64,000 nucleotides of DNA from assembly GCA_025617745.1 (NCBI GenBank), contig CM046863.1, positions 1,798,001-1,862,000 on the forward strand. The letters run 5' to 3'. Of this stretch, positions 13,242 through 63,345 are shown piece after piece. A program made the position numbers and the translations under genes. The notes beneath the pieces are model-generated. The model was not told the DNA's origin and ran no database searches. It was given only the letters and a program-made list of their open reading frames with translations. The DNA comes from Heliocidaris erythrogramma (lineage: Eukaryota; Echinodermata; Echinoidea; Camarodonta; Echinometridae). Position 1 is the stretch's first letter. Every line of letters starts with the position of its first letter.

Positions 13242-13246
13242 GCGAT

Positions 13247-30250: not shown

Positions 30251-30254
30251 AAAT

Positions 30255-30405: not shown

Positions 30406-31172
30406 TCTTTCTTCGTTTTTCTGTGTATGTTCTCTTCTCAGTTTATGTTATATACATGTATGTATTACTTTGTTTATTTCCTTTTTCCTTGTGTATTTCA
30501 TTGTTTCCACCTTCTTCAAGTTTAATTTTCTTTCTATTCTTATTCATTATATGTGTTTTTTTCTATCATCTCGTTTTTTTTTCTATTTAGTTATGTAGTT
30601 CTTTTTTTTAAATCTTTCAACCTCTCTTTTTTCATATACCCCTATACATTTGTTTCCTTCCACATTATTATTATTATTATTATTTTATATGTTTATTTTA
30701 TATATAAATAAATATATATATATTGGGCGTGATTTCTCTCTCTGCATGTGCATTTATTTATTCTTCTCTTTCTTCTCTTTTTGCTTATGCATTTCTTTGT
30801 TTGCCTTCTTTCATCTTGTATTTCTATCCCTTTCTCTTTCCATATCCTTTCATTTATATCTTTGTTTTTCACTCTCCATTTTTCTGTCTTTCCTTATTTT
30901 TCATTCTATCATTTTCTATTTCTCATTTACTTATGTCTTTTTGTATATTTTTCTTCTCTTATTTTCTACATGTAGTTCTTTGTGTTTCCCCTTCATCAAT
31001 CTTCTCATTTTACTCCTCCTGTATTTCTCCCCCCCCCCCCCCCCCCCATCGTCTGCAAAAAAAAAAATCCCTGTGTATTTCTTTGCTTTTCTTTCTCTCC
31101 TTTTCTTTTCTTGATAAAGCCAACCCCTGAATTGTGTCATACCGCGGTGTAAGGGGGGGGGGGGGGGGGGGA
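30406..31172. repeat. Pyrimidine-rich low-complexity DNA
   Basis: The plus strand is very T- and C-rich (CTTTCTTTTT type runs), with poly-C near 31031-31047 and poly-G near 31153-31170. The overlapping open frames are composition artefacts. Confidence 0.7.
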
Positions 31173-31176
31173 TTAA

Positions 31177-32705
31177 GGGCCTGATTTGTGCGCTAGTTTA
31201 CGACCCATCCCTAATAAAAGGGGGCTGGCCTCTGACACCTTTTTTAGGTGTTGCCGGGATCTTATCTGAAAGAGATGTGAAATAAAAAATGAATTGAATT
31301 GAATTATAGACCAGCTGGGTCTTTGGGATATGCCACAAGAAGATGGAAACGCAGCCATACCCATTGCTCCCTGACCTCTCCGATATTGTTGGTTATAAAT
31401 CATTACGTTGGTTAAAAAATGAACCTACCAACTGTTTGTTTAAAAAAGAATTGTATGTAAAACAAGGGGATTTTTTTAAACATCTGGTAGGTTCATATTT
31501 TAACCAACCTAATAATTTTTTTCTGAGAGTGTGCATCCCGAGGAAGAGGAATTTGGCAATGTGGTCACCCCCTCGAGCATGTTTTTTTTCTCAAAGCTAT
31601 TTATAAAATATCCCTTTGAGGTTGGCCATGGAATGGGTATAATCTATGACTGCAGTAAATACATATTGTTGAGATCTCTATAGGCAGTAAACTATTGACA
31701 CAGAAAAAAAGAAATATCTAAAGATATCTGCAAATATCGTACTTTCATCCTAATTTGTGTTCGGGGGGGGGGGGGACGCCTCTTACTGGAAAATTCTAAG
31801 GGGGCTACCCCCCCCCCTCCGAAGTAAGAAATCATTTTTAAACATCTCTTAATTTAATGCTACCTAATCCCAGTAATACAGAGAGAGAATTTCAAAACAA
31901 TTACGTGTATAGATCAAGCAATGATGTGTTTGTGTGATAAAAAGTGCTCGAAAATGCAAAGTTCCAAACTACAAATACAAAATTTGCAAAGCTCTATCAT
32001 TTGAGAAAACATTTGAAAAGGGTAACAGATCAGCATTTATGTACCAGTCAGCAAATGATTATTATCACAAGTAAAAAAATGACTAAAAATAAGGATACTG
32101 ATTTTCATGGGGTTTCGCCAGCCTCCATTATTTTTGAGAAACCATAGGCCTACGGCCTACCTTGAATACAGCTGATATGACCCTCGTCTTTTTTATTTGT
32201 AAGAAGATAAAAATTATGTTTACCACTTCATAAAAACATCCAAAGTCTGAAAGAATAGCCTATGGTAACAAAGAGTTAAATGAAATAAGACAATGACATG
32301 CAAAACACACCAAAGGAAATTTCATGAAAAGGTTACGGCGAGATGAAAGCTAAGGCCCACTCCCCCCCCCCCCCCCCCCAAAAAAAAAGAATAATATAAT
32401 GACAATTACAAATATACACAATAAAGGATCGTTATTATATTCAAAGTTTCTGCATCAGGAGAGGTTCTAAGTCGTGCTTGAAATTTTCAATAGTACACAA
32501 ATTCAAATTCAAATTTATTGATATAGAATTCTCACATAATAGAATTATCATCAAAACAAAGCAAAACAAAGCAAAACTCGGCAGAGGCATGAATGCTGAA
32601 TATATAAATACATAATTGTACATAATTATTATCAGATTATACTTGATTGAAAAGGAATGTAGCTACCCTTATAAACAAAACAAAACATGATAGCAGCATA
32701 CTGAA
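31177..32705. repeat. Foldback left arm, outer part
   Basis: This matches the complement of 53062-54555 and 47726-47802. It includes an older hairpin at about 31405-31512 (GTTGGTTAAAA/TTTTAACCAAC), mirrored at about 54223-54330, so that hairpin predates arm duplication. It is non-coding. Confidence 0.85.
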
Positions 32706-33044
32706 TGTAAATAAAACCTTGACATGTCGGAAACTTATATCAGAACCAATTCGCTGTGGAATTATACTCTACATAAAGTAATCATAGTAACAAAAAAAAA
32801 CACACACACACAACGGAATGATGAATAGAAGCAAAACCTGTTACGTACTCAACTGATAGAAATGTTGCTATCATTTCAAACAAACAGATGAAGACAAAAA
32901 CCTGAATAACACCAAAAAAAAAGAACAGCGTTTATTTTTTTATCCTTTTGGGGGTGGAGGGTAGATTATGACAAAGAGTGGGTCATATCACTACTATAGA
33001 TGCATATAGAATATATTATTTTAAGAATTACCACAAGTGAGGAG
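32706..33044. other. Left-arm segment absent from right arm
   Basis: Together with 38028-38741 this forms about 1.05 kb that the right arm lacks. No gene is seen. Confidence 0.65.
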
Positions 33045-33235
33045 TGTAATGATATAACTCAGCTGAGTCTGTGTTAGGAAAGTTAATAGCGCCACCTAGT
33101 GGTGATGCGATATATGAGAGATACGACTTCATACGATGTTCATGTATCCAGAGGCAGCGTCATGTTGTCATGCCTGTTAAATGTGAGTCAAACATAGTTA
33201 TAAAGCTTACAACACGATATGTCAAGCTTATTACA
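33045..33235 (+). repeat. 5' LTR of the Gypsy element
   Basis: It is 191 bp, identical by eye to the 3' LTR. It contains GCGCCACCTAGTGG (33089-33102), whose complement CCACTAGGTGGCGC fits the CTCF core consensus. Confidence 0.93.
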
Positions 33236-33400
33236 TGGTGTCAGGAGTGAAAGTGACTGTTGAATGCTTGAACTGAGATATCTAATATGAATTATTAGTA
33301 ATATTTGAAAGGGGAACAGCTCCACGATTTTTGCCTGACCGGATATACCCGCCGTGAAATTCTCCATTGAGTACAGTACAGTGCTGTGACCGGAAATAGC

Positions 33401-37282: not shown

Positions 37283-37836
37283 ATAGTAACTGTACAAATA
37301 TACAGGGGCAGAATAAACCCCTTTTGTACAGTTTAGAGTGTTGGGTAGTCCACCCCTTCACTCATGTTAGTTATAGTTTAGACAAGTATTGCATGTTGTG
37401 TTATAAATAATTGGTTTAGTTTTGTATGAGAGTAAACGTTGGAAAACTGTGCTATCTCAGAGGCAGAATAATCCTCTAGTGCAGTTAGAGTAACTGATAG
37501 TCCACTCAGTTACTCATTTACATACATATGCTAAGTGTTGTGTATTAAGTGTTATATTAAGTTGATTTAGAAATAATTATTACTCAAGCGATGTTGACCA
37601 AGCATTGAATTGAAAAGCGATCAAGAAAGTTCACTACAGCAGCAAGCAAGTTTGAACACTGAAGAACCTGGACTGAAAGGAAACACTATAACCACACCAC
37701 AAATTTTGGACTGAACTGGAACTTTAATTTTAGGTTCATTATCATATAAATCTGGAAATATGTTGTTCTGGATTTGATACCTAAACATGATATATGTACC
37801 GGGTACTATAATTGCATTTCTTCATGAAAAGGGGGA
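37283..37836 (+). other. Gypsy 3' untranslated region and polypurine tract
   Basis: Non-coding, ending in AAAAGGGGGA (37827-37836) just before the LTR. Two similar stretches (near 37299-37340 and 37458-37510, sharing GGCAGAATAA and AGTCCAC) form an imperfect direct repeat. Confidence 0.75.
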
Positions 37837-38027
37837 TGTAATGATATAACTCAGCTGAGTCTGTGTTAGGAAAGTTAATAGCGCCACCTAGTGGTGATGC
37901 GATATATGAGAGATACGACTTCATACGATGTTCATGTATCCAGAGGCAGCGTCATGTTGTCATGCCTGTTAAATGTGAGTCAAACATAGTTATAAAGCTT
38001 ACAACACGATATGTCAAGCTTATTACA
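37837..38027 (+). repeat. 3' LTR of the Gypsy element
   Basis: Identical by eye to 33045-33235, including the CTCF-like core at 37881-37894. Confidence 0.93.
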
Positions 38028-38741
38028 ACGAGCGTCTGTTGAAGTTATGGCAAATTATATAGGGCTCTCTCTGTCGCTCTCAGGTTATTACCAAATATTT
38101 TGTTATTACACGTATTATTAATATGATAAGAGGTTATTTATGACGCATTCATGAATTAACTATTGTTATTTTTGTTGTATGTATATGATCACACATTATA
38201 AATCTGGTAAACTTGATGTTATTTTCTGAACAAAAACAATGTCATATTATCTTTTCCGTGTTTATTAAATGCATTCATTCAGTCTCCCATGTTTTATGAA
38301 GGCTTCAATAGGCCTATATTCGTAGTGAAATGGAAAAACAAAGATAATACAAACACTATCATTTTCATGTTTGTTTGTAACTTAATATAATATATAAGTT
38401 AAGATAAGTCAAATCACTCTCAGCGCCAGGATGTTTTTCAGGGAGTTGACACTATAAACATAAAAAAATATTATACAATTACAAATTTGTGATAAATTTT
38501 ATATATGAATGAATAAGTATCATTATATCAACATGAATTAAGCCATTTGTTGTTTTTATCATGGACATTAGCATCATCTTTATCATCTTTATCATCTTCT
38601 ATTTAAATTTCTTTAACAAGAAAAGAAAAATCAAACAAACAAAAAAGTGATGGTGAACTTCAACTATCGAAGCTAATGAAAACCACCATCTATGAAATAT
38701 CAAAGAAAGAAAATATATGAAGAAATAAATAGTTTAAAGAG
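38028..38741. other. Left-arm segment absent from right arm, continued
   Basis: AT-rich and non-coding. It is the second half of the stretch missing from the right arm. Confidence 0.6.
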
Positions 38742-40488
38742 TGAAAGGCTAGAGGAAAACACCGAAACTGTTTTATCTTCAAAAGGAAAGAAAAAAAAAG
38801 AAATTCATCTACATGTACCTGGATATATATCTTGACATTCATCATTATCCCCTTGTATTTATTCATGTATTTATTGTCTAGTTATTCAAGAAATTTTAGT
38901 TTTCATTATAAGAGGACCATGGGGGGGGGGGGGGGATGGAATAACTTGTTGGCGGATGCATGCAGGGCCTAGGAGGTACGTGCCCCCCGCACCCCTGCAA
39001 ACCTTTTCCCCTTCCTTCAATTTATTTCACTTAATTTCTTTTTCTTTTACTACTTATCAACATAAAAAGCTTTGAAAATATTGTTGACCTATTTTATTAT
39101 TTATTCATTTTCATATCCCTTCTTTCTATCTTTATTTTTCATTGTGTGGGGGAATAAAAGAAAGAAAGGGAAAAGGAAAAAAAATAGGGGAGGAAACTTT
39201 AAAATATAAAACATATGAATGAATATTATTTAATTTTTTTTTTTCAAAAATTAAGTCTCATTATGCTTGCCACTACTTCATTTTGTATACCCTTATGGTT
39301 ATTGGTTAAAAAATAATATTAGATACACCCTGCTTGTGGCCGAATGGAATATGGAACCAGAACGTAGATATTTCCCGTATTCCGTGAGAACAAGCAGGGT
39401 GCAACGATTTTATCCCTTAAAGTGTACACATATAATTTATTGGTCAAGAATACTTAATTATCTCTCAGACAAATTGACCAATCAGATTACATATAATAAT
39501 AATAATCGTATTAAAATATATATGAATCGATCAGTTTCCGATTGTCTTGGCCCCTATCGATAATCACAACTTGTTCTTTGATGATTTCGTGATTTTTAGG
39601 TCCTGAAATAATATTTTCTGGTCAATTTCTGATTGAAAATTACTGAAATAAGCCCTAGCAATCTTGAAAGTGCCTCTTTATTATCTCTTGGCTGCTCTGG
39701 GATTTGTTTTCGCCTGTTGGCTACTGTTGGCTGTTGTTGGCGGTTGTTGGCTGTTGTTGGCTGTATTGCTATACGCTTTTCTGTGTATATTGAGTCGAGC
39801 GCGCTAGTGTTTTGTGTTGCATGCTGAGATATTCGAGACGAAAAAAACAAATGTAAGTATCTTTCATAAATGATGAGTTAGAATTTGTACGGTTGTGTTG
39901 ATTTAATTTTTACATAGTTTTAACTGTACAATTATCGAAATTATTATAGTGTTAGATATAATGGACTCCAGAGGCAGAGCACTCGAACAAAGTATAGGTA
40001 TGCCCGTGCGTGGAAATTGGTCAGGTTAGTCCCATATGTTGTGATTTGTGTAGTCTGTATGAATCACAATATGTGGGACAGGCAAATCCAATGCCAATGG
40101 CCTGGGCCTAACACTAACAGTAACAAAGAGACCACTCGAGACTTCATGTGCACAAATGAGTGACCGTTTTCATGCAGTGGTGGCTCTCTAGTCTGCTTTG
40201 AAATTCAGCCTTTTATAAAAAAATTCTGAAATATTGATTTCATGTGGATAGTAAGTTAAGACTAAATCAATGATTTAAACTAAAGTTAGGGTGTCTGAAC
40301 ACACAGAGAAAGTGTCAGCACGAAATCTTGCCAAATTCATGGAAAAAAATGGTCAACTTTTTCTGAAAGTTCATCGCGTAATCACAATATGATCTGAATT
40401 AATTTTTTACATCATATTTGTTATGTGTGAAAAGAGAAATTTCTGGGCATCTTAAAATGATTTAAGCACGCTAAGATATTTTCACCAA
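38742..40488. repeat. Foldback left arm, inner part
   Basis: The complement of 42014-43352 and 47375-47725. Mirrored landmarks include a GTTGGCTGTTGTTGG repeat (39715-39765 and 42615-42665) and the poly-G at 38925. It is non-coding, and short frames occur in mirrored pairs. Confidence 0.88.
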
Positions 40489-42013
40489 AAATTCATGATA
40501 TTGCCTCCATCCACCCTTGGCTTGGGCATGTTGGGGCCCTTGCGGCCTAGGGCCAGGCCTAGCTGTAGCACACACGGAATGCTATATATGGGGCTCTATT
40601 TAACGAACTTTGCAATCACGAAACAAAAATGGCTATTTCTTTTCTTTTTATCCCATTTATGATTTTTTAGACGTATCATTTTGTTCATATCATTGTAAAA
40701 TTTTGTTACCTTGGATTTTCGCTCTAAATACTGCCGTCTTCATGAAAAACCTCTCTTCTCGATGCAAGTCACTGTCTGGGGACGGTTCGTGAAATCGACA
40801 AAATGCCTAGCAGCGTGCACATCGCTTTGCAGGTGCGTTTTCACGATCCGTCCTGCCTTAGACGGGACAGATCGTGAAAACGGACTTCCTCAATTGTCAG
40901 GAACCTTACACGTTTCGTGATGTCACGTATGACGTAACTAGACAATCTCAGACTCTGAAATTTTGAGAAAATGTAGGCATTGTGATACCTAGTTAAAATA
41001 TCGATAAAAATCATTTTATGAATTTGCATCGATTTTTGCCTCTTGGGACACTTCGTAAAAACGGTGACGATAATGGTTGCATATATTTGGCCAATTTAAA
41101 ATGGCAAATCTGCTATTTATGTGGTCATAGCAGGCCCGCAAACTTGCCGCTCAGACTAAATTAGCGCTCAACGTATACATTTTAAGTCCGTCCTTGGATT
41201 ATAATATGCAATATATATAGGAGAGGACTGGTCAGTTTAGCATGACTGGTAACTTCATTTTCCCCTCATTGCAAAAGCATTGCTCGACGGCAAATCAACA
41301 AATATTGTTAAGTAAACATCTGCATTTATGACAATGATGAATGTTAACCCTAAATAGTGCATATATAATGCTCGTAAATAGCGATCCGCCATTCTCTGTC
41401 ACTATTCTCCAGGTTTGCCCCAAATTGTATTATAACGCCGGACACAGTCACTCATATCAAGAAAACTGGCTTCTGAGTTTGGAATCCTTATTGGAATTTA
41501 TCTTAAAATTATATGTATAACTTTAGTAGGGTGTCTGGAGAAAAAAATTATTTTGCTTCTCGATCAATAATATCAAAATTTCTTTCTGAAAATGGAAACT
41601 ATTCACCTTCAAACTATCCTTTAAATAAGATTTTTTTTTTAAATTGAAAAAATTACCGTGAAATATAAGAAAGTATGCGGACGATTTTTCAGATTTTCTG
41701 TGTCATAGGCTATATAGTTAAGAAATAGTACACACAGAAGTTCATATTTTCGTATTCGATGAGATGATACGACTTTATATTTCATGAAACTTATAACGTG
41801 CTTGAAGTGACAGATACATGTAGGAAATTTAATGCTCTTTCCAATGATGGGTATTTTTCCTAGATTTGAAAATCAGATCATGTAGTAAAATTGTGACAAA
41901 GTGACAAAATTATGAGAAAACGGGTATATTCGGTTTCCCATAGGAAATGCATGGGGAAATGGCAATGTAAATGCACACAATATTGAAGGGTTTGCCAGAT
42001 TTTTCGTAACTTT
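40489..42013. other. Foldback spacer
   Basis: Unique sequence between the arms, with no gene recognised. It contains a strong hairpin, CGTTTTCACGATC (40836-40848) with GATCGTGAAAACG (40870-40882). Confidence 0.6.
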
Positions 42014-43352
42014 ATTTTTGGTGAAAATATCTTAGCGTGCTTAAATCATTTTAAGATGCCCAGAAATTTCTCTTTTCACACATAACAAATATGATGTAAA
42101 AATTAATTCAGATCATATTGTGATTACGCGATGAACTTGCAGAAAAAGTTGACCATTTTTTCCATGAATTTGGCAAGATTTCGTGCTGACACTTTCTCTG
42201 TGTGTTCAGACACCCTGACTTTAAATCATTGATTTAGTCTTAACTTACTATCCACATGAAATCAATATTTCAGAATTTTTTTATAAAAGGCTGAATTTCA
42301 AAGCAGATTGGAGAGCCACCACTGCATGAAAACGGTCACCCATTTGTGCACATGAAGTCTCGAGTGGTCTCTTTGTTACTGTTAGTGTTAGGCCATTGGC
42401 ATTGGATTTGCCTGTCCCACATATTGTGATTCATACAGACTACACAAATCACAACATATGGGACTAACCTGACCAATTTCCACGCACGGGCATACCTATA
42501 CTTTGTTCGAGTGCTCTGCCTCTGGAGTCAATTATATCTAACACTATAATAATTTCGATAATTGTACAGTTAAAACTATGTAAAAATTAAATCAACACAA
42601 CCCTACAAATTGCCAATACAGCCAACAACAGCCAACAACCGCCAACAACAGCCAACAGTAGCCAACAGCCGAAAACAAATCCCAGAGCAGCCAAGAGATA
42701 ATAAAGAGGCACTTTCAAGATTGCTAGGGCTTATTTCAGTAATTTTCAATCAGAAATTGACCAGAAAATATTATTTCAGGACCTAAAAATCACGAAATCA
42801 TCAAAGAACAAGTTTTGATTATCGATAGGGGCCAAGACAATCGGAAACTGATCGATTCATATATATTTTAATACGATTATTATTATTATATGTAATCTGA
42901 TTGGTCAATTTGTCTGAGAGATAATTAAGTATTCTTGACCAATAAATTATATGTGTACACTTTAAGGGATAAAATCGTTGCACCCTGCTTGTTCTCACGG
43001 AATACGGGAAATATCTACGTTCTGGTTCCATATTCCATTCGGCCACAAGCAGGGTGTATCTAATATTATTTTTTTAACCAATAACCATAAGGGTATACAA
43101 AATGAAGTAGTGGCAAGCATAATGAGACTTAATTTTTGAAAAAAAAAATAATAGTATTCATTCATATGTTTTATATTTTAAAGTTTCCTCCCCTTTTTTT
43201 TTCCTTTTCCTTTTCTTTTTTTTATTCCCCCCCCCTTTTTTTTTTGGGGGGGGGGGGAGGGGTGAGGGCGGTGAAGGGGTCCGTACTGTAAAAGCCCCTC
43301 ACCCTAACACACAATGGAAAATAAAGATAGAAAGATAAAATAGGTCAACAAT
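42014..43352. repeat. Foldback right arm, inner part
   Basis: Inverted copy of the left arm, with a local expansion of about 75 bp (43230-43305, poly-C/T/G). It is cut at 43352 by a LINE and resumes at about 47375. Confidence 0.85.
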
Positions 43353-47378: not shown

Positions 47379-47802
47379 CTTTCAAAGCTTTTTATGTTGA
47401 TAAGTAGTAAAAGAAAAAGAAATTACGTGAAATAAATTGAAGGAAGGGGAAAAGGTTTGCAGGGGTGCGGGGGGCACGTACCTCCTAGGGTCTGCATGCA
47501 TCCGTCAACAAGTTATTCCATCCCCCCCCCCCCCCCCATGGTCCTCTTATAATGAAAACTAAAATTTCTTGAATAACTAGACAATAAATACATGAATATA
47601 TACAAGGGGATAATGATGAATGTCAAGATATATATCCAGGTACATGTAGATGAATTTCTTTTTTTTTTTCTTTCCGTTTGAAGATAAAACAGTTTCGGTG
47701 TTTTCCTCTAGCCTTTCACTCAGTATGCTGCTATCATGTTTTGTTTTGTTTATAAGGGTAGCTACATTCCTTTTCAATCAAGTATAATCTGATAATAATT
47801 AT
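47375..47802. repeat. Foldback right arm, middle part
   Basis: Continues the right arm after the LINE. At about 47721 it jumps over the 1.05 kb present in the left arm (32706-33044 and 38028-38741). It is cut at 47802 by an LTR element. Confidence 0.82.
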
Positions 47803-47978
47803 TGTGATGAGGGCGAGTTCAATAGGTCGAGATCGATTGTGACGATCGAGACCAAGAGGAGATTCAACATGGAGTTTTATTAACTTACAACCGGTTTTCC
47901 AGAGTTATCTGTTGTTGTGCTGTCTACTTAAATATAAGGCAGGGAACCTGGGATACGGGCAGGGAGCGGCCCGTAACA
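47803..47978 (+). repeat. 5' LTR of the SCAN-like element
   Basis: 176 bp with TG...CA ends. It differs from the 3' LTR at a single base by eye, which implies a recent insertion. Confidence 0.92.
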
Positions 47979-48833
47979 AAATGGGGGCTTGTGTCGGCAG
48001 TCTACTGGTTGTTTTCCTGTAGACAATTGTGTGTTTTGGGCCGGTTTTTTGTAAGTATGTTGTTGAGATTTCCCGTCGTGGTCGATCTTCGTCGCCTTGC
48101 ATTCGCTGCGGTAGCGTAATGTGTGTTGCATGTATACACGCTGCGTGTATGTGTGTTTGTTGGTGGTCGCTGACCATGCCGTGTGGTTTGCACGGTGTTG
48201 CACTACTCACTAGCTCGCGCTTGTGTGCTTGGAACAGAGCTTTTTGCTTGTGTTTCGGTATTTTACAGTTTGTAAGACAGTTTGTTGGACTTTTCAGTCT
48301 GTTATTTGCCTCTGAGTCTTGGTTCATGATTACTGAATGGTGATAAACGTTGAGACGGTATATGAGCTCAACGTGGGTTATTTTTGCCGTTGGTACTTTT
48401 GGCTTGATGCGGCGTGTGTGTATAGCACGTTGTGCATGGTGGTGCGGCTTATCTCCCGGTGTGGTTGAATTCTCGCACGGGCCGTGAATGAGGTTGTGAC
48501 GTCCAGGATATTTTTTCACTTGGTTTAGTGGAATTTTGTGGCTGGGGTTTATGACAGCCATGGATGGTAGCTTTCTCGGGAATTGAAAAATCTAGGTTGT
48601 TTCTGGTTGGTTGTGTGTATAACAGCCAAGGGCCAGGTTCTATGCTAGTTTCACGGTATATTGTGTAGACTAGGTTTTTCAGTTTGACTGAGGTCTGGCT
48701 GTGTGTATAGCAGTCAGGTTAGTTTCTTTCATATTTTAGAAACTAGGTTCCTTCGGTTTGGAAGGGTTTTGGTTGTGTGTATAGCGGCCAAGTGTCTAGT
48801 TTTTCTTGGTTTTGTTGAATAACTAGATTGTGC
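47979..48833 (+). other. Leader of the SCAN-like element
   Basis: It begins with the putative primer site (47982-47999). The last ~300 bases contain three or four imperfect ~90-bp repeats marked by GTGTGTATA(A/G)CAG(C/T)C (near 48613, 48698 and 48774). It is non-coding. Confidence 0.65.
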
Positions 48834-51491
48834 ATGATGGCTGATGAATTTTCGGTAGGAGAATTTGTAAGAGATCCATCTGCAGAGCAATTGCGCTCAT
48901 TGAGGAAGAGTGATTTGTTGGCTTTAGCAGCTCACTATGAAGTTCCTGGTGTAAAACAGTATATGCTGAAATCCAGCATATTGAATTCAGTTCTTGAATT
49001 TCTGATAGAGGAAGAGGTGTTGCCTTTTGAGGAGGCGGAACAGACTTCTCCACGTTCTCAGTTCCCGGTAGATTCTCAGTCTACTGATAGGTCGGTTTCA
49101 GACCAAGTACGCATACGAGAACTTGAGCTTGAGATAGCAAGAGTTCAGTTGCAGCGAGAACAAGTGGTGTTGCAAAGGGAGCGAGCAAGTGCTGATGAGA
49201 GAGAGCAGGTTAGGCAGGGTCAGCCTCGTTTTGACGTTTCAAAGCATGTTCGGATGGTTCCAGTGTTTGAGGAAACAGATGTGGAGAGGTATTTTCTCCA
49301 TTTTGAGAAAGTTGCTCAGAGTTTGGATTGGCCGCGTGAGAAATGGTCACACTTGTTGCAGTCGCAACTGAAAGGTAAAGCTCGTGATGCATATTCGGCT
49401 TTGTCTAATGAAGAAGTGTGTCATTATGACACGGTGAAAAATGCTATTTTGCATGCCTACGCGCTCGTTCCGGAAGCGTATCGTCAAAAGTTTAGAGATT
49501 CACTAAAAGTTGAATCACAGTCGCATAGGGAATTTGCGAAAACAAAAGAAATTCAGTTTGACCGATGGTGTCAGTCGCTTGAAGTTACGGAATTCAAGGA
49601 GCTGCGTGAGTTGATACTCCTGGAGGAATTTAAGAGGTCATTGCCTCAGGAGGAACTAAGGGTGTCAGATTTGGGTAAAGCGGCAAGTCTCGCCGATGAG
49701 TATGTTCTTACTCATAGCCATAGAAATTATAGGTCTGGTGCACAGAATACTCGCGTTAGTTTCCGTAAAAGCCATGGTCATGGTCAGAAAAACGGTAGGA
49801 AACAAGATCTGACAGAGAGTGAGGATGACAAGAGTGGGTCTGATGGAGAGACTGCGAACAGTGACAAGAGTTGCTATTACTGCAAGAAAGTAGGGCATTT
49901 CAAGTCTAGTTGTCCTGTTCTAAAAGCGAAAAAGGACAAAGAAAATGCACAACCGATGGGATTGGTGAATCATGTCATGCAATCTAGGAAAAGTGGTGTG
50001 TGTGGTGCTCGGCACAATAGAATAAAGTCAGTTGACTTTGCGAAGGTTCAAGCGCAGTATGAACCGTACATATCAGTTGGATATGTGTCTTTGGTGGGAT
50101 GTGAATATGCCAGAAAGGTCAAGATTCTTAGAGATACTGGTGCAGCTCAGTCTTTGATCCTAGATATTGTACTGCCTTTTGGTGAATCTTCTTCTACCGA
50201 CTCTAGTGTGTTGTTAGAGGGAGTGGGTGGATTTGTTCAAGTACCCCTTCATGTTGTTGATTTGTGTTCTGATCTGGTCTCGGGAGAAGTAATCTTTGGA
50301 GTGCAGAAGTCACTTCCGGTACAGGGTCTGGGTGTCTCGATTATTTTGGGAAATGATCTTGCAGGAGACAAAGTTTCAATGTCGGGTCCTGTGGTGAGTG
50401 AAAGCCCTGTTGTAAGAGCGGCTGATGTAGTCGTTTCCATGGTTGATGATCAAGAGAACAATGAGACGTGCCGAGAGAGAAGTGTGACAGATCACATAGA
50501 GCCTGAGACTAAGACTAAGAGTGATGACTGTGAGTTGGATGTTGATTTGAATGTTGATGTTCAGGATCCAGGGTTCAATTTGAAGTCAAATTCTGTTAAT
50601 CTTGCCCAGTTTGAGGAAAAATCAAAACCATTATCGTTGAGTATGAAAGAGGATCCAACGATGTTATCGAGGATGGTGAATGAGTTGGTTACCGGTTTGA
50701 AAGGATGTGTAGCCTATCTTGACAATTTTGTGACTAATCCTAACACATGTGAGAAGCATGTTGAGAGGAAGGTGATGTTGTTTCAACAGTTGTCTGCTGC
50801 ACAGTTAGCAGTCAATAATATGACAGAGGATTTCACAGGTAGTGAGAGGCAATTTCCTGGTCATATAGGCATTGTTGAATGTGGCGGAGTCAAGACATTC
50901 TCTGCTGAGGCAGCGGCAGGACCCCTACAGAGGTGGAAGGAGGATCCGGCAGGAGAGGCCCAGGTGTTCTTAGACAAGATGGGACCTTCACCTCACCCCC
51001 TGTGTGAAGACGCCGGCTCCAACCAACAACCAATCCCCTTTGGCCGTCCGTTGCTAAGAGCACCGGACTCCATGATGCTAGTCAACCCTGTACTGATGGC
51101 TCCGGATTTCAACCAGCCATTCGGCCTCGTGGTGGATGCGAGTGATGTGGATGCTGGTGCCGTGTTGACTCAACAAGATGCAGATGGAGTCGACCGTCCC
51201 ATATCATTCTTCTCAAAGAAATTTTGTGCAAGTCAGAAGAACTATTCTACTGTTGAGAAGGAAACACTAGCCTTGATACTTGCACTTGAACATTTTGACG
51301 TGTACGTCAGTGGATCTCAACATCCAGTCAGGGTACTAACTGATCATAACCCCCTGACATTTGTCAACAAAATGAAAAACAAAAACCAAAGACTAAGACG
51401 ATGGAGTTTGCTGATACAGGAGTACAGCTTGGACATTCAACATGTGCCAGGAAAGGACAATGTTATTGCAGACGCTTTATCTCGCGTGTAA
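48834..51491 (+). CDS. Gag-protease-RNase H polyprotein, pol core deleted
   Basis: 885 residues counted from the first ATG (48834). The N-terminus has a SAP-like helix pair (LRKSDLLALAAHYEVPG). Residues about 205-296 (PEAYRQKFRDSL, RELILLEEFKRSLPQEEL) resemble the SCAN domain, a capsid-derived dimerisation fold known from Gmr1-like elements. A zinc knuckle CYYCKKVGHFKSSC lies at 347-360, and protease DTGA at 434-437. After a divergent stretch and a GC-rich segment, RNase H begins near Asp768 (VVDASDVDAGAVLTQQ) and the frame ends at IADALSRV. No RT palm or integrase motif exists anywhere in the element. The frame is open throughout, so a shortened protein could be made. Confidence 0.9.
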   Translation: MMADEFSVGEFVRDPSAEQLRSLRKSDLLALAAHYEVPGVKQYMLKSSILNSVLEFLIEEEVLPFEEAEQTSPRSQFPVDSQSTDRSVSDQVRIRELELEIARVQLQREQVVLQRERASADEREQVRQGQPRFDVSKHVRMVPVFEETDVERYFLHFEKVAQSLDWPREKWSHLLQSQLKGKARDAYSALSNEEVCHYDTVKNAILHAYALVPEAYRQKFRDSLKVESQSHREFAKTKEIQFDRWCQSLEVTEFKELRELILLEEFKRSLPQEELRVSDLGKAASLADEYVLTHSHRNYRSGAQNTRVSFRKSHGHGQKNGRKQDLTESEDDKSGSDGETANSDKSCYYCKKVGHFKSSCPVLKAKKDKENAQPMGLVNHVMQSRKSGVCGARHNRIKSVDFAKVQAQYEPYISVGYVSLVGCEYARKVKILRDTGAAQSLILDIVLPFGESSSTDSSVLLEGVGGFVQVPLHVVDLCSDLVSGEVIFGVQKSLPVQGLGVSIILGNDLAGDKVSMSGPVVSESPVVRAADVVVSMVDDQENNETCRERSVTDHIEPETKTKSDDCELDVDLNVDVQDPGFNLKSNSVNLAQFEEKSKPLSLSMKEDPTMLSRMVNELVTGLKGCVAYLDNFVTNPNTCEKHVERKVMLFQQLSAAQLAVNNMTEDFTGSERQFPGHIGIVECGGVKTFSAEAAAGPLQRWKEDPAGEAQVFLDKMGPSPHPLCEDAGSNQQPIPFGRPLLRAPDSMMLVNPVLMAPDFNQPFGLVVDASDVDAGAVLTQQDADGVDRPISFFSKKFCASQKNYSTVEKETLALILALEHFDVYVSGSQHPVRVLTDHNPLTFVNKMKNKNQRLRRWSLLIQEYSLDIQHVPGKDNVIADALSRV

Positions 51492-52885
51492 TCTTTGGAC
51501 AGAATTGTACTAAACATTTCAACAATCCTATGGGAGAGTGAACTACCCTAGTGTGAAATAATCTACATGGGCTTGGACAGTTGAACATTTTTTGTGAATA
51601 AACTGGAATTGCACGTGAAGAAGAAAACCAGAACTTTGAACTTGGAGTGATTGTTTGATAATCACAAACTATTGCAAACAGAGACTTATTGGACTCAGTG
51701 TAAAGTTTTATGTTTTTCTCATGTTTGCCTTCCAGATATATTTTGTACAATGTATTTTTGTACATGAAATGATAACTGTTTTTTGTTTTGAAAAAGGAAC
51801 ATGCATGACAGTATTTTGGTGTTAAACTCCTTTGGCACAATTATGGAGGGATAGGAAGAGAGAAACAAATGATTTCTCCTTTTGTTTGTGCATGTTTGTC
51901 AAAGTTAAACAGGAAATACATTATATAAATTCAATTTATATCTTATGCAAACTATGTTGCATGTTGTTATTAACTACAGGAAATGTGGAATGAAATGGAT
52001 TTTTGTCTGTTTTGAGAATCACAAAAAAGATATGAATTTTCTCATATTTTTGGGTCTGTGGAATTCATGTGTTAAACAGAGTGGACAATTTATGTGCCTA
52101 ACCAACTAAAATATCTTTGTTATCAATGTGTACAAGTTTGCATTAATGGTGGAAACTTTTATAGATGATATATATTGTGATGATCATTGTTGTCATATTT
52201 TTCAGCCAGGTCTAATATTGCTGAAGGTTGTTTATTGATTGTTGCATTGTATGAAAAGATATTTTGCTTAAAATTGCAAGGAAGCATCAGTAATGGTATA
52301 TGCCTGTACATAATGATACATGTACTGAAAACCCATTTGATGTCTTAACTTCTATGCGATTTTATTTTGTTGTACATGTATTTACTTTTGTAATAATTCT
52401 TACATTACTTGCATCAAGGGAGGATTCTGAGCAATACTGCAGTTATATATCAAGTTGATTGCTTTTATATGTCTCCTAGCAAATTTACATGCTAATTCAT
52501 TAAGTTTAAAGACATGGAATTGTGTTCACACTCTATGTTATTACATGTTTAACTCTAGAACACAATTTCTGCATTTATAATGAGGCTTGTGCTATTTTTA
52601 GGATCAGCTAGCAAGCGAATACTGTGTTTAGATGCTCTACAGTCGTTTCTATGCCTTTTGCATTATATTTAGTTCACATTATTGCTGAAAACGACTGTAT
52701 TTGAATCGATTCATTCTTAAGGGATCGATAGAATTTTACTAACCGGGACGAAAAATGTATATTTTCGTATAAGGTTCTATACTGTGTAATAAACATGTTC
52801 GTTCATATAAAGTTTCTGTGTTGTACGAGATTTTATGTACATACTTTTTTCGTTACACTCCGAAGTATGTTTTTATGGAAGGGAG
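51492..52885 (+). other. 3' non-coding region of the SCAN-like element
   Basis: About 1.4 kb without an integrase or envelope frame, AT-rich, ending in GGAAGGGAG (52877-52885) just before the LTR. The lack of integrase after RNase H suits the Gmr1 type, in which integrase precedes RT. Confidence 0.7.
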
Positions 52886-53061
52886 TGTGATGAGGGCGAG
52901 TTCAATAGGTCGAGATCGATTGTGACGATCGAGACCAAGAAGAGATTCAACATGGAGTTTTATTAACTTACAACCGGTTTTCCAGAGTTATCTGTTGTTG
53001 TGCTGTCTACTTAAATATAAGGCAGGGAACCTGGGATACGGGCAGGGAGCGGCCCGTAACA
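52886..53061 (+). repeat. 3' LTR of the SCAN-like element
   Basis: 176 bp, one difference from the 5' LTR. It is followed by TTAT, the presumed 4-bp duplication. Confidence 0.92.
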
Positions 53062-54555
53062 TTATGTACAACTTTGATTTAATATAACGTGCCTTTAATT
53101 TTTTTGTATTCTGTATCTATATATTCAGCATTCATGCCTCTGCCGAGTTTTGCTTTGTTTTGCTTTGTTTTGATGATAATTCTATTATGTGAGAATTCTA
53201 TATCAATAAATTTGAATTTGAATTTGTGTACTATTGAAAATTTCAAGCACGACTTAGAACCTCTCCTGGTGCAGAAACTTTGAATATAATAACGATCCTT
53301 TATTGTGTATATTTGTAATTGTCATTATATTATTCTTTTTTTTGGGGGGGGGGGGGGTGGAGTGGGCCTTAGCTTTCATCTCGCCGTAACCTTTTCATGA
53401 AATTTCCTTTGGTGTGTTTTTGCATGTCATTGTCTTTTTTATTTCATTTAACTGTTTGTTACCATAGGCTATTCTTTCAGACTTTGGATGTTTTTATGAA
53501 GTGGTAAAAATAATTTTTATCTTCTTACAAACAAAAAAGACGAGGGTCATGTCAGCTGTATTCAAGGTAGGCCGTAGGCCTATGGTTTCTCAAAAATAAT
53601 GGAGGCTGGCGAAACCCCATGGAAATCAGTATCCTTATTTTTAGTCATTTTTTTACTTGTGATAATAATCATTTGCTGACTGGTACATAAATGCTGATCT
53701 GTTACCCTTTTCAAATGTTTTCTCAAATGATAGAGCTTTGCAAATTTTTGTATTTGTAGTTTGGAACTTTGCATTTTCTAGCACTTTTTATCACACAAAC
53801 ACATCATTGCTTGATCTATACACGTAATTGTTTTGAAATTCTCTCTCTGTATTACTGGGATTAGGTAGCATGAAATTAAGAGATGTTTAAAAATGATTTC
53901 TTACTTCGGAGGGGCGGGGGTAGCCCCCTCAGAATTTTCCAGTAAGAGGCGTCCCCCCCCCCCCAACACAAATTAGGATGAAAGTACGATATTTGCAGAT
54001 ATCTTTAGATATTTCTTTTTTTCTGTGTCAATAGTTCACTGCCTATATATAGATCTCAACAATATGTATTTACTGCAGTCATAGATTATACCCATTCCAT
54101 GGCCAACCTCAAAGGGATATTTTATAAATAGCTTTGAGAAAAAAAAAACATGCTCGAGGGGGTGACCACATTGCCAAATTCCTCTTCCTCGGAATGCACA
54201 CTCTCAGAAAAAAATTATTAGGTTGGTTAAAATATGAACCTACCAGATGTTTAAAAAAAAATCCCCTTGTTTTACATACAATTCTTTTTTAAACAAACAG
54301 TTGGTAGGTTCATTTTTTAACCAACGTAATGATTTATAACCAACAATATCTGAGAGGTCAGGGAGCAATTGGTATGGCTGCGTTTCCATCTTCTTGTGGC
54401 ATATCCCAAAGACCCAGCTGGTCTATAATTCAATTCAATTCATTTTTTATTTCACATCTCTTTCAGATAAGATCCCGGCAACACCTAAAAAAGGTGTCAG
54501 AGGCCAGCCCCCTTTTATTAGGGATGGGTCGTAAACTAGCGCACAAATCAGGCCC
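53062..54555. repeat. Foldback right arm, outer part
   Basis: Complement of 31177-32640 with scattered substitutions and different poly-G/poly-C lengths. It is non-coding. Confidence 0.88.
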
Positions 54556-54559
54556 TTAA

Positions 54560-54900
54560 CGTGATTTCGTCGCAACGAAATGTATTCCGTACCGAACGAA
54601 ATAAATTTCGTGTACACAAAAGTTATTTCGTCGCAACGAAATGTATTCCGTACCGAACGAAATAAATTTCGTGTACACAAAAGTTATTTCGTCGCAACGA
54701 AATGTATTCCGTACCGAACGAAATAAATTTCGTGTACACAAAAGTTATTTCGTTCGGTACGGAATACATTTCGTTGCGACGAAATAACCTTTGTGTACAC
54801 GAAATTTATTTCGTTGGGTACGGAATACATTTCGTTGCGACGAAATAACTTTTGTGTACACGAAATTTACTTCGTTCGGGACGGAATAACATTTCGTACG
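54560..54900. repeat. 61-bp sub-terminal repeats, right
   Basis: Three direct units up to about 54742, then units in the opposite direction to about 54900. Same motif as 26220-26436. The unit orientation flips at TTATTTCGTTCGGTACGG. Confidence 0.87.
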
Positions 54901-54951
54901 AAATTGTGTAAACTTGGACAGAATACGTGGCTTTACACTTGGCGCCCCATA

Positions 54952-56790
54952 TCTACATTCATCTATATCTTGCCATGCTTTTAACATATCTAAATAAAAC
55001 ATGGGAATACCATTTAAATTCATTTTCTTCATATCATAATTACAAAGAAATATATTTCGACCTCCAATCGATCTAAAAAAGTAATCAAATGTTAGTTTCC
55101 ACCCTAAATATTTTTCACCGTACAACAGCCGTTTGATCCACATTATTCTTTGAGTCTTAATAAAAGTTTTGTAGTCAGTTACCCGAAACCCCCCTGCGGA
55201 ATAATCTTGATATAATATTTCCTTTTTATTCTATCTTTCCCACCCCAAATGAAATTAAAGGAAATTTTTTCAATTTCTTCAAGGATACTATGTGGAACAG
55301 ATATAAGAGAAGAAACGTAATTTAATTTTGAATATACATACATTTTCAATAATTTGATTTTGCCGTACGTCGTAAGATCTCGTTGGCTCCACCAACCTAT
55401 TAATCTTTTTATTTTACTTAATATCTCTTTGTAGTTTAAATCATCTTTTATTTTCGAATTACGTGAAAAATAAACTCCTAGGATTTTTATGTCTTGTACT
55501 CTATGTCCCAAAAAAGGTAAACCGGGCATATCAATCGCTTCCCCCAACCAGATAAAATTTTATCTTATCCATATTTATTTTTAATCCACTTAATTTCTCA
55601 AAGTCTTCGAAGACTTTCTTCACTCTATCAATTGACTTCATATCTTTAAGAAACAATGTTATATCATCGGCGTAAAGTACCTGCTTTATTTTTCCAGTAT
55701 CAAACCGAATTCCTTCAATACAAGGGTCCTTTCGGATATAATGAGCAAGCAGCTCAATAGCTATTATAAATAAATAGGGGGACAAAGGGTCCCCTTTTAA
55801 CTTTAAAGTATCCAGTTGAGTGTCCCCCGTTCATCACGCAGCTACTAACATCATTATAAAGAATTTTAACCCAAGAGCACAATACATTACCGAGCCCAAA
55901 AGATTCCAATGCTTTGAACAGTAGTCTATGTGAAATACAGTCAAATGCTTTTTCAAAATCTACAGCGATAAGAAAACCTACAGGTTGATACAATGACTGA
56001 AAAAACACATCATCTATTAAACGCACTGCCTCTCCAATATTTCTCTCTTTAACATAGCCCACCTGATCGTAATGAATGATATCTCCTAAAACCTCTTTTA
56101 CCCTTTTAGCCAACACTTTTGACAGAATTTTATAGTCAAGATTTAGAAGAGTTATTGGCCTATAGTTTTTCATATACAAAGGAACTTTTCCCTCTTTCTC
56201 AATAAGTGTAATGACTCCCTGTCTCTGTGAATTGGATAACACCTCAGTTTCGAAACTCTCATTAAATGCTTCCACTATATACTTCCCTAAGATTGGCCAA
56301 AATGTATAATAGAATTCAGCTGTAAAGCCATCATTGCCTGGTCACTTGTTCCATTTCATTTCCTTAACAGCTTTAAAGCATTCTTCGAATGTTATATGCC
56401 CTTCACAAAAGGCTTTATTTTCTTCGCTTAGTTTGGGCAGTTCGCTTAAAAACATATTATCAATATCTTCTGTTATGTCCTTATCTTGACATTCATATAA
56501 ATTCTTATAAAACTCCCCAATGATCTTTAAAATCTCTTTCCTATCACGTATCACCTCATTATTGCTATTATACATGTATATTCCCTTGATCACACTTTTT
56601 CTTTTATTCGACTTTAATAATTGTTCAAAAAATTGAGAATTTCTTTCTCCTTCTTCAGACCATTCTGCCCTCGATCGTACCTTTAAGCCTTGACGAGAGT
56701 AGTCAAAAAGCTTTTCCAGTTCATTTCTTTTCAAGTCTAGTTCTTCCTGAATATTATTTTGGAAATTAAACGAATTGTGTAGTATTGCGA
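54952..56790 (-). pseudogene. Split L1/Tx1-like LINE, 5' piece (RT)
   Basis: On the minus strand: SRAEWSEEGERNSQFFEQLL and FEECFKAVKEMKWNK (56734-56342), a TGA where the family has Ser before PGNDG, then YRPITLLNLDYKILSKVLAK, DQVGYVKERNIGEAVRLID and IAVDFEKAFDCISHRLLF (motif A). A deletion of about a dozen bases near 55795 removes the RQGDP residues and shifts the frame. YADDITLF follows at about 55670. The last residues are DIDECR at the insertion edge. The endonuclease is missing, so the copy is 5' truncated near 56790. Confidence 0.88.
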
Positions 56791-59979: not shown

Positions 59980-62900
59980 ATGCTGTGTGCATTACAATAG
60001 CACTCTGAGTGCAGTCCCTATGCATGCCCTCAAACTGCTATATACAGCACTTCAGTTTTTACAGTGTAGGATCGAAAGCTCAGGCAACTTTTGACTCCAT
60101 TTTACTCCATTGGCTCGCTATTATTGGACAAGCAGTTTTCAGCAGTTTGTTTTCCATGTTTTCTATGAGATGAAAAAGTTAGTTTCATCATTTTCTAAAA
60201 GAATACCCCACATTGTGAGAGCACTACCAATTTAATCAAGGTCAGATAGATGAATCAGTCAGTTATGTGATCTGTGACAATATCAAAAAAATAGATTCAC
60301 ATTGTAAAAAATTTGTTGAAATTATATAATTATTGAAAAGAAAACTATTGCAAGAATTGTCATAATTCATTAAGCATATCAAAAAGTTTGGATTCAATTC
60401 AGTTAAATACTTACCACCTGAACAACGTAGATCAAGAGAAGAAGTAAAGAGATCGAAAACACTATTAGCATTAAATATGTCGATTTCTCTTCTTTCTCCA
60501 GTTTTACCCTTTAAGATTTGACAAATTTATACGTAGTTTTCTTTTATTTTAATTATTTTATTACTAGTTGCTGTGTGCATTACAATAGCACTCTGAGTGC
60601 AGTCCCTATGCATGCCCTCAAAGTGCTATATACAGCACTTCAGTTTTTACAGTGTAGGATCGAAAGCTCAGGCAACTTTTGACTCCATTTTACTCCATTG
60701 GCTCGCTTTTATTGGACAAGCAGTTTTCAGCAGTTTGTTTTCCATGTTTTCTATGAGATAAAAAAGTTAGTTCATCATTTTCTCAAAGAATACCCCATAT
60801 TGTGAAAACACTACCAATTTAATCAAGGTGAGATAGATGAATCAATCAGTTATGTAATCTGTGACAATATCAAAGATAAAGATTCAAATTGTAAAAAAGC
60901 TGTTTGAAATTATATAATCATTGAAAAGAAACCATTGTAAGAATGTTCATATATCATTAAGCATTTCAAATAGCCAGGATTCCATTCCTTTGAATACATA
61001 CGTTCTGTACAACGTAGATCAAGAGAAAGAGTAAAGAGATCAAGACCCAATATTAACATTCAGTATTTCGATTTCTCTTCTTTCTCCAGTTTTACCCTTT
61101 AAGATTTGTCAACTTCATACGTAGTTTTCTTTTTTTTTAATGATATTATTACTAGTTGAAATGTTATATGTTTTCTATGAGATCAAAAAATGTTAGTTTC
61201 ATCATTTTTGCAAAGAATACCCCATATTGTGAGAGCACTACCAATTTCAAGGTCAGATAGATGAATCAATCAGTTATGTAATCTGTGACAATATGGAAAA
61301 AATAGATTCACATTGTAAAAAATTTGTTGAAATTATATAATTATTGAAAAGAAAACTATTGCAAGAATTGTCATAATTCATTAAGCATATCAAAAAGTTT
61401 GGATTCAATTCAGTTAAATACTTACCACCTGAACAACGTAGATCAAGAGAAGAAGTAAAGAGATCGAAAACACTATTAGCATTAAATATGTCGATTTCTC
61501 TTCTTTCTCCAGTTTTACCCTTTAAGATTTGACAAATTTATACGTAGTTTTCTTTTATTTTAATTATTTTATTACTAGTTGTTGTGTGCATTACAATAGC
61601 ACTCTGAGTGCAGTCCCTATGCATGCCCTCAAAGTGCTATATACAGCACTTCAGTTTTTACAGTGTAGGATCGAAAGCTCAGGCAACTTTTGACTCCATT
61701 TTACTCCATTGGCTCGCTTTTATTGGACAAGCAGTTTTCAGCAGTTTGTTTTCCATGTTTTCTATGAGATAAAAAAGTTAGTTCATCATTTTCTCAAAGA
61801 ATACCCCATATTGTGAAAACACTACCAATTTAATCAAGGTGAGATAGATGAATCAATCAGTTATGTAATCTGTGACAATATCAAAGATAAAGATTCAAAT
61901 TGTAAAAAAGCTGTTTGAAATTATATAATCATTGAAAAGAAACCATTGTAAGAATGTTCATATATCATTAAGCATTTCAAATAGCCAGGATTCCATTCCT
62001 TTGAATACATACGTTCTGTACAACGTAGATCAAGAGAAAGAGTAAAGAGATCAAGACCCAATATTAACATTCAGTATTTCGATTTCTCTTCTTTCTCCAG
62101 TTTTACCCTTTAAGATTTGTCAACTTCATACGTAGTTTTCTTTTTTTTTAATGATATTATTACTAGTTGAAATGTTATATGTTTTCTATGAGATCAAAAA
62201 ATGTTAGTTTCATCATTTTTGCAAAGAATACCCCATATTGTGAGAGCACTACCAATTTCAAGGTCAGATAGATGAATCAATCAGTTATGTAATCTGTGAC
62301 AATATGGAAAAAATAGATTCACATTGTAAAAAAATTGTTTGAAATTATATAATTATTGAAAAGAAAACCATTGCAAGAATTGTCATATTTTATTAAGCAT
62401 ATCAAAAAGCTTGGATAATTCAGTTAAATACATACCACCTGAACAACGTAGATCAAGATAAGGAGTAAAGAGATCGAAAGCACTATCAGCATTAAATATG
62501 TCGATTTCTCTCCTTTCTCCAGTTTTACCGTTTAAGATTTGTCAACTTCATACGTAGTTTTCTTTTATTTTAAGGATTTTATTACTAGTTGAAATGTTAT
62601 ATGTTTTTTTTATGAGATAAAAAATGTTAGTTTCATCATTTTTGTAAAGAATACCCCATATTGTGAGATCACTACCAATTTAATCATGGTCAGAGATGAA
62701 TCAATCAGTTATGTAACCTGTGACAATATCAACGATATAGATTCAAATTGTAATTCCACGAATACTTCATTTTGAGAGTACTACCATTTTAATCAAGGTC
62801 AGATAGATGAATCAATAAGTTATGTAATCTGTGACAATATAAAAAAAATAGATTCACATTGTAAAAAAATTATATAATTATTGAAAAGAAAACCATTGCA

Positions 62901-63345
62901 AGAATTGTCATATTTTATTAAGCATATAAAAAGCTTGGATAATTCAGTTAAATACTTACCGCCTGAACAACGTGGATCAAGATAAGGAGTAAAGAGATCG
63001 AAAGCACTATCAGCATGAAATATGTCGATTTCTCTCCTTTCTCCAGTTTTACCCTTTAAGATTTGTCAACTTAATACGTAGTTTTCTTTTTTTTAAATGA
63101 TATTATTACTAGTTGAAATGTTATATGTTTTCTATGAGATAAAAAAAGTTAGTTTCATCATTTTTCACTACCAATTTAATCAAGGTCAGAGATGAATCAA
63201 TCAGTTATGTAACCTGTGACAATACAAAAGATACATATTAAAATTGTAAAGCTACGAATACTTCATTTTGAGAGTACTACCATTTTAATCAATGTCAGAT
63301 AGATGAATCAATCAGTTATGTAATTCATTTAACAGCAGTGCAAAG
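59980..63345. repeat. Higher-order tandem array with long and short units
   Basis: Long units (~588 bp) begin TGTGTGCATTACAATAGCAC at 59985, 60572 and 61583. Short units (~420 bp) lack the first ~170 bp and begin GAAATGTTATATG at 61158, 62169, 62592 and 63115. A long-plus-short pair of about 1011 bp (60572-61582) is followed by a nearly identical pair (61583-62592). Every full unit contains the block ending in a splice-donor-like GTA(A/T)GTATT on the minus strand. Confidence 0.88.
60415..60510 (-). other. Candidate repeated exon, first copy
   Basis: Read on the minus strand, the block is open in the frame giving LEKEEKSTYLMLIVF then SISLLLLLIYVVQ, a hydrophobic, membrane-segment-like stretch, and it ends at G|GTAAGTATT. 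Corresponding blocks end near 61003, 61424, 62014, 62435 and 62960. Copies near 61003 and 62014 carry a stop and a shift. No convincing acceptor or flanking exons are seen, so it may be chance or a dead exon. Confidence 0.3.

What the first reader, a model, noticed from the sequence alone, without database searches (positions are those of the whole stretch)
47803..53061. Young LTR element whose open frame fuses SCAN-like Gag and protease to RNase H
The LTRs differ at one base in 176, yet the element has no RT palm and no integrase. The frame is nevertheless open for 885 codons. This looks like a successful internal-deletion derivative moved in trans. The frame ends right after RNase H, as expected if integrase lies upstream of RT (Gmr1 type), and the capsid region resembles SCAN, a domain known to derive from such elements.
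Basis: partly seen in the sequence, partly recalled or inferred. Interest (0 to 1): 0.78.

Follow-up and report, generated by a model that had tools for sequence, protein, structure and literature searches.

The report
Jumping element borrowing another's copying machinery
In a large animal genome, probably a sea urchin's, a family of mobile elements has lost its own copying and inserting enzymes but still encodes a capsid protein, and apparently spreads by using the enzymes of a relative that carries nearly the same end signals.

Summary
In detail: 176-bp LTRs with one mismatch, an 885-codon open frame, SCAN-type capsid, protease, RNase H, no integrase. Three corrections follow.

(1) RT is not simply absent. 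A decayed remnant of about 92 codons remains; the second Asp of its YxDD motif is Asn in 19 of 19 copies compared.

(2) It is probably not a one-parent deletion. Gag-PR groups with a Diadema lineage, RNase H with an S. purpuratus-type lineage.

(3) It is not a one-off. Of 34 genome matches to the junction, 24 cross it nearly whole, on 10 contigs; 12 LTR pairs differ at 0-5 sites. No IN or intact RT was seen inside any of 29 further LTR-bearing places, as far as fetched.

A likely autonomous partner exists: a Gmr1-type family with seven frames of 1515-1521 codons. One copy shares LTR ends, primer site and polypurine tract. Shared variants look constrained in CA, PR and RNase H (N/S 0.33), not in the spacer (1.36).

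Best reading: a semi-autonomous mosaic family moved in trans, supplying Gag-PR. Against a needed RNase H: three copies carry Glu for a catalytic Asp. Parallels: RLG_Quinta, IAP I-delta-1.

The parts
47803..47978 (+). 5' LTR, 176 bp, TG...CA
   Evidence: one mismatch to the 3' LTR
47982..47992 (+). likely primer binding site, three bases after the 5' LTR
   Evidence: shared with the C6 partner copy: 28 aligned columns from LTR end across this site at 96%; assignment to tRNA-Pro is recalled, not tested
47979..48833 (+). 5' untranslated leader, 855 bp
   Evidence: 71% to the partner's leader over 234 alignment columns
48834..49961 (+). Gag: two-lobed capsid with SCAN-type C-lobe (aa about 208-297) and CCHC knuckle (aa 347-360)
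   Evidence: Pfam; model; Foldseek/VIA
50016..50393 (+). aspartic protease region with DTGA (aa 434-437)
   Evidence: alignment to relatives; D434 and G436 present in 17 of 19 copies, the other 2 having no sequence there; no Pfam hit
50394..50633 (+). post-protease linker; the deletion (P0003 residues about 610-1211: integrase and RT front) maps at its end
   Evidence: tblastn; alignment
50634..50909 (+). RT remnant with YLDN in place of YIDD, aa 601-692
   Evidence: blastp; 22 of 35 conserved columns changed; end branch 10 against median 0.21
50910..51086 (+). spacer of unknown origin, about 59 codons, GC 0.54-0.57 in overlapping profile windows, present in the 19 copies compared
51087..51491 (+). 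RNase H with stop; the four expected acidic residues are present in this copy
   Evidence: Pfam; model; key residues; catalytic assignment recalled
51492..52885 (+). 3' untranslated region, 1394 bp, ending in the polypurine tract
   Evidence: pieces at 70-76% to the partner and 91.5% over 71 columns across PPT and LTR start
52886..53061 (+). 3' LTR, 176 bp
47799..47802 (+). TTAT target-site duplication, left copy (right copy 53062-53065)
31173..32710 (-). inverted duplicate of the flank holding the uninterrupted site near 32620

Best explanation
This is one young copy of a multi-copy, semi-autonomous LTR retrotransposon family derived from Gmr1-type Ty3/gypsy elements. Its chassis (LTR ends, primer site, polypurine tract, RNase H, 3' UTR) is akin to autonomous elements whose frames are still open in this genome. 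Its Gag-protease half belongs to a different Gmr1-type lineage that lost integrase and the front of RT, after which the RT remainder decayed. The joined frame encodes Gag-PR-spacer-RNase H. Inferred: Gag and protease build particles that package its RNA; the partner supplies RT and integrase in trans, which recognise the shared primer site, polypurine tract and LTR ends; copies then integrate with 4-5 bp duplications. Shown: the anatomy, conflicting phylogenies of the two halves, copy number and LTR ages, the partner's open frames, shared signals in one partner copy, and the variant pattern. Not shown: expression, packaging, use of the partner's enzymes, RNase H activity.
For: Junction shared: 24 of 34 matches to the relic-spacer-RNase H query, the window copy among them, run from base 13 or lower to base 250 or higher, on 10 contigs. 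LTR pairs: 0-5 mismatches in 12 pairs with at least 175 compared bases. No IN or intact RT seen inside any of 29 further LTR-bearing places, within the stretches fetched. Mosaic: Gag-PR joins P0006/P0008 (100/98) and RNase H joins P0003 (99/87); AU p 1.3e-9 against win+P0003 in Gag-PR, 0.0038 against win within P0003/4/7/9 in Gag-PR, 0.0013 against win+P0006/P0008 in RNase H. Partner: 7 places with open frames of 1515-1521 codons at 77-78% over residues 3-1506 of P0003; one copy shares LTR ends, PBS and PPT and has YIDD. Selection: variants present in 2 or more of 19 copies give 19 N: 20 S in CA+PR+RNase H (ratio 0.33) and 25 N: 6 S in post-PR, remnant and spacer (1.36), Fisher p 0.007; singletons 0.93 and 0.63.
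Against: No expression or packaging data. Shared signals were checked in one partner copy only. D837 of RNase H is Glu in 3 of the 17 copies with data (L011, L014, L015; L011 has identical LTRs but also a 4-base insert near the frame start), Asn in L020 and Gly in L026. A Gly that the five closest relatives share beside the first catalytic Asp is Asp in 15 of 19 copies and Asn in one. So RNase H activity may be dispensable. Gag as a whole showed no lower N/S for shared variants than for singletons, and NC is at 1.06. Protease alone does not reject the other grouping (AU p 0.32). With the C6 copy added, the win-P0003 pair loses its strong support. GC skew breaks near 50900 but also falls to about 0 at 52300-52800, so it is weak evidence. 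The source of the spacer is unknown.
Confidence: 0.82

Rival explanations
1. Plain internal deletion of one full-length parent; the differing relatives reflect only unequal rates.
For: One deletion spanning P0003 residues about 610-1211 explains the loss of IN and the RT front. Protease alone does not reject grouping with the P0003 lineage (p 0.32). The win-P0003 pair in RNase H is weaker once the C6 copy is added.
Against: AU tests reject it for Gag-PR (p 0.0038; capsid alone 0.029) and for RNase H with P0006/P0008 (0.0013). RNase H is 90% identical to P0003 while capsid is 58% and protease 63%. No frame of 1500 codons or more with a Gag above 61% was seen among 150 scored of 811 candidates in this genome.
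Confidence: 0.1
2. RNase H is a passenger: it came with the 3' chassis by template switching and the frame is open mainly because the family is young. Only Gag-PR matters.
For: D837 changed in 5 of 17 copies with data, and a Gly beside the first catalytic Asp changed in 16 of 19. LTRs are young. In the drift simulation 6-14% of runs keep the 92-codon remnant open by chance.
Against: Shared variants in RNase H are 9 N: 9 S, ratio 0.34, against 1.36 in the spacer. 0 of 50 conserved columns are changed in the window copy. The simulation keeps all 231 spacer codons open in 0.2% of runs at 45% identity, 0.1% at 40% and 0 of 2000 at 35%, under a crude model without indels.
Confidence: 0.4
3. One-off deletion after insertion, a dead copy.
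For: None found.
Against: 24 genome places share the junction, several with near-identical LTRs and their own target duplications.
Confidence: 0.01
4. A host gene made from Gag-PR (domestication) rather than a mobile element.
For: Long intact frame with partial constraint.
Against: LTRs, 4-5 bp duplications, an uninterrupted site in the duplicate flank, many dispersed copies and lone LTRs.
Confidence: 0.01

Closest known systems
RLG_Quinta with RLG_Cereba (wheat; PMC11302176, abstract and passages seen)
   Same: Non-autonomous LTR element with an intact Gag frame, no RT or IN, an autonomous partner sharing PBS and LTR ends, and Gag variants attributed to recombination.
   Different: Plant centromeric element; carries Gag plus a domain of unknown function, not PR plus RNase H; it evolved from its partner family, whereas here the Gag-PR half comes from another lineage.
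Mouse IAP I-delta-1 (PMC7411935, abstract and passages seen)
   Same: A deletion in gag-pol makes one fusion protein; [quoted passage not shown]
   Different: A mouse endogenous retrovirus family; no cross-lineage Gag or decayed RT remnant is mentioned in the passages seen.
Gmr1-like Ty3/gypsy elements (PMC8220671 passages; original papers not seen)
   Same: Full-length relatives have SCAN-Gag, PR, IN upstream of RT, RNase H last.
   Different: This family lacks IN and a working RT and looks like a mosaic of two such lineages.
SCAN domain of vertebrate zinc-finger proteins, derived from a Gmr1-like Gag (PMC3424704 passages)
   Same: Pfam SCAN above its cut-off; C-lobe model aligns with SCAN structures.
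   Different: Here it is part of a Gag with an N-lobe and a CCHC knuckle.

Membership tests
Gmr1-like Ty3/gypsy lineage (filed as derivative only) | Integrase encoded upstream of RT | tested here: inconclusive
   Met in relatives P0001, P0003, P0004; the element itself has no IN and only an RT remnant, so its own order cannot be read
Gmr1-like Ty3/gypsy lineage (filed as derivative only) | Capsid related to SCAN | tested here: met
   PF02023 33.2 bits, cut-off 27
Gmr1-like Ty3/gypsy lineage (filed as derivative only) | Groups with IN-before-RT elements in Gag-PR and RNase H trees | tested here: met
   order was read directly for P0001, P0003, P0004 only, and no named Gmr1 reference was in the trees
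Semi-autonomous partner pair (criteria as in PMC11302176) | Same primer binding site as the autonomous element | tested here: met
   One C6 copy, LTR end plus PBS 28 columns, 96%
Semi-autonomous partner pair (criteria as in PMC11302176) | Same LTR termini and polypurine tract | tested here: met
   91.5% over 71 columns across PPT and LTR start; last 9 bases of both LTRs identical; one C6 copy only
Semi-autonomous partner pair (criteria as in PMC11302176) | Autonomous partner with intact Gag-Pol frame present | tested here: met
   7 places with 1515-1521 codon frames; YIDD in the C6 copy
Semi-autonomous partner pair (criteria as in PMC11302176) | Proteins actually supplied in trans | not testable with these tools
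   needs RNA, protein or particle data
Active RNase H | Four acidic catalytic residues | tested here: inconclusive
   All present in the window copy; D837 is Glu in L011, L014, L015, Asn in L020, Gly in L026, no data in L022 and L041; assignment of residues recalled
Functional RT | YxDD and motif-B region | tested here: not met
   Second Asp is Asn in 19 of 19 copies; Tyr present in 18, a stop in L034; 22 of 35 conserved columns changed in the window copy
SCAN domain | Score above Pfam gathering threshold | tested here: met
   only model positions 1-60 of 90 matched, the window copy being 18 bases shorter at codon 274 than 15 of 16 other copies covering it

The most novel reading that the evidence does not exclude
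The capsid-protease of a lineage with no full-length member found in this genome survives only by riding on a different lineage's Pol. Its fused RNase H is kept not for catalysis but as a piece that helps the foreign capsid take up the partner's enzymes or RNA, so the family is a capsid donor to another lineage rather than a mere parasite.
Probability: 0.15. Interest if true: 0.75.

Novelty: new variant of a known kind. Interest (0 to 1): 0.52.

Why it matters
Elements that keep Gag or a gag-pol fusion but depend on a partner are described in wheat and mouse. Here an animal family keeps Gag, protease and RNase H but not RT or IN, appears to be built from two Gmr1-type lineages, and sits in one assembly with a candidate partner sharing its cis signals. 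That makes it testable which Pol functions must act in cis and whether a capsid of one lineage can serve the Pol of another.

Tried and rejected
One-off deletion, host gene and hidden IN/RT were set aside. The viral-contig scan gave no relative among 130 pattern stretches. The genome-contig scan gave 2 loci in MAG contigs (L001, L002), not used. The spacer protein found no homologue: 140 candidates, none at E up to 10; a frame-shift-aware comparison with the RT-connection region of P0003 and P0007 on both strands stayed within shuffles. The RT-remnant tree could not tell which lineage it came from (p 0.41 with P0008, 0.41 with P0003). P0006 and P0008 from Diadema lack an RT or an IN match respectively, but may be gene-model artefacts and are not counted as deletion derivatives. 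The model of the RT remnant and spacer is mostly under pLDDT 50; its Foldseek hits were not interpreted beyond the RNase H part. An RNase H DNA search of the own genome and a PBS pattern search did not complete, so the closest RNase H donor and the spread of the PBS are unknown.

Full report
Observation. The two LTRs (47803-47978, 52886-53061) are 176 bp with one mismatch, and the frame 48834-51491 is open for 885 codons. Pfam finds SCAN (33.2 bits, cut-off 27) and a CCHC knuckle in the Gag part, nothing in 49962-50936, and RT_RNaseH at 119 bits at the end. Elsewhere in the window lies an inverted duplicate of the flanking DNA (31173-32616 at 97.7%, 32622-32710 at 97.8%, 38739-39110 at 94.7%). 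It has the uninterrupted site with one TTAT where the element has two, so this is a real insertion, most simply younger than the flank duplication.

Relatives and the deletion. Full-length relatives P0001, P0003 and P0004 have SCAN, IN, RT, RNase H in that order, the Gmr1 order. Against P0003 the element matches residues 1-609 and 1212-1506, so about 600 residues, all of IN and the front of RT, are missing.

RT remnant. Residues about 600-692 match the RT region with YIDD at 35-42% identity (65-71 bits), where relatives match each other at 67-91%. At columns at least 90% conserved in relatives the window copy deviates at 22 of 35 here, against 1 of 52 in Gag, 1 of 25 in PR and 0 of 50 in RNase H. 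In the RT tree its end branch is 10 against a median of 0.21. The second Asp of YxDD is Asn in 19 of 19 copies, and Tyr is a stop in L034. As the LTRs differ at 1 of 176, RT was lost long before this insertion: the element moved without its own RT. The next 59 or so codons matched nothing searched.

Mosaic. In Gag-PR the element joins P0006/P0008 (100/98); in RNase H it joins P0003 (99/87). AU tests reject win+P0003 in Gag-PR (1.3e-9), win within P0003/4/7/9 in Gag-PR (0.0038; capsid alone 0.029; protease alone 0.32, not rejected) and win+P0006/P0008 in RNase H (0.0013). Clades were chosen after seeing identities, so the p-values are indicative. With the C6 partner copy added, win, P0003 and a C6/P0009 pair form one group (80/82) and the win-P0003 pair is no longer resolved. 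GC skew drops near 50900 and returns after 51500, but drops again at 52300-52800, so I give it little weight.

Copies. The own genome (G000, 1.064 Gb, 26 contigs) answered after several busy replies. An LTR query scored 40 of 155 candidates. I fetched 29 distinct further places (five were fetched twice, larger the second time). Eighteen hold the remnant and spacer, eight show only an LTR, and three hold an LTR with other parts only. No IN or intact RT was seen between LTRs in the stretches fetched, though some elements were not seen whole (such as L028/L044 and L023/L040); L022 has weak IN/RT pieces outside its LTRs. A junction query gave 34 matches of 34 candidates, 24 of them, the window included, spanning bases 13 or lower to 250 or higher. 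Twelve LTR pairs with at least 175 compared bases differ at 0-5 sites. Exact duplications of 4 or 5 bp flank ten copies (window, L012, L014-L016, L018-L022; the L022 3' LTR matches only to base 151); L011, L013, L017 and L026 are imperfect. Four other copies (L012-L015) show no frame shift or stop in the comparison. The window copy is 18 bases shorter at codon 274 than 15 of the 16 others covering it.

Selection. Variants in two or more of 19 copies, which mostly arose before insertion, give 19 N: 20 S in CA+PR+RNase H (ratio 0.33) and 25 N: 6 S in post-PR, remnant and spacer (1.36), Fisher p 0.007; PR+RNase H against spacer p 0.011. Singletons give 0.93 and 0.63. Whole Gag showed no such drop in the first 16 copies (shared 16 N: 7 S, 0.75; singletons 0.76). 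Numbers are small and copies are not independent. Against a need for catalysis, D837 is Glu in L011, L014 and L015, Asn in L020 and Gly in L026, of 17 copies with data.

Partner. A P0003 query finds seven places open for 1515-1521 codons at 77-78%, among 31 scored of 7951 candidates, and other relatives mostly at 51-56%. One copy on C6 shares the LTR ends, PBS and PPT and parts of both untranslated regions; its RNase H matches at 110 of 134 residues and its RT has YIDD. Its Gag is 60% identical to the element's. No frame of 1500 codons or more with a Gag above 61% was seen among 150 scored of 811.

Mechanism. Most likely the family supplies Gag and protease and is reverse transcribed and integrated by the partner's enzymes through the shared signals. 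This last step is inferred. It works like RLG_Quinta with RLG_Cereba and like IAP I-delta-1. In my paper searches (listings) I saw no title or abstract describing a Gag-PR-RNase H family without RT in animals; most subscription journals are not in that library.

Changes on checking. Confidence in the best explanation went from 0.83 to 0.82 because the GC-skew break proved not to be unique.

Noticed in passing
window 33045-38027: A second young LTR element with identical 191-bp LTRs and a 1303-codon stop-to-stop frame with RT before integrase (read by eye), inserted beside the duplicate of the same flank.
   Followed up: no
window 39148-40492 and 42014-43231: Large inverted repeat, arms 97-98% alike with one 461-base stretch at 100%.
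   Followed up: no
window 10138-14068 (minus strand): Adjacent frames resembling RT/RNase H and a recombinase-like part, possibly a DIRS-type element; recalled resemblance only.
   Followed up: no
window 26162-26444, 30129-30443, 54517-54955: Arrays of 61-bp and 21-bp repeats, partly shared in inverted orientation between distant places.
   Followed up: no
window 59981-63324: Long tandem repeats with about 424 and 587 base spacing.
   Followed up: no
P0005 (709 aa, source ena): A relative with Gag-PR followed by a tail with no precomputed IN or RT domain, possibly another semi-autonomous family or an incomplete frame.
   Followed up: no
G000:C11:52350284: Gag at 62% in an 880-codon open frame, possibly a similar-sized derivative of the partner family.
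   Followed up: no
L001 and L002: Two MAG contigs labelled Heimdallarchaeota and Breoghania encode relatives of this Gag or Pol, probably eukaryotic contamination.
   Followed up: no
spacer codons 693-750 across copies: Shared variants there are 10 N: 1 S, the highest ratio of any segment; chance, relaxed or positive change.
   Followed up: no
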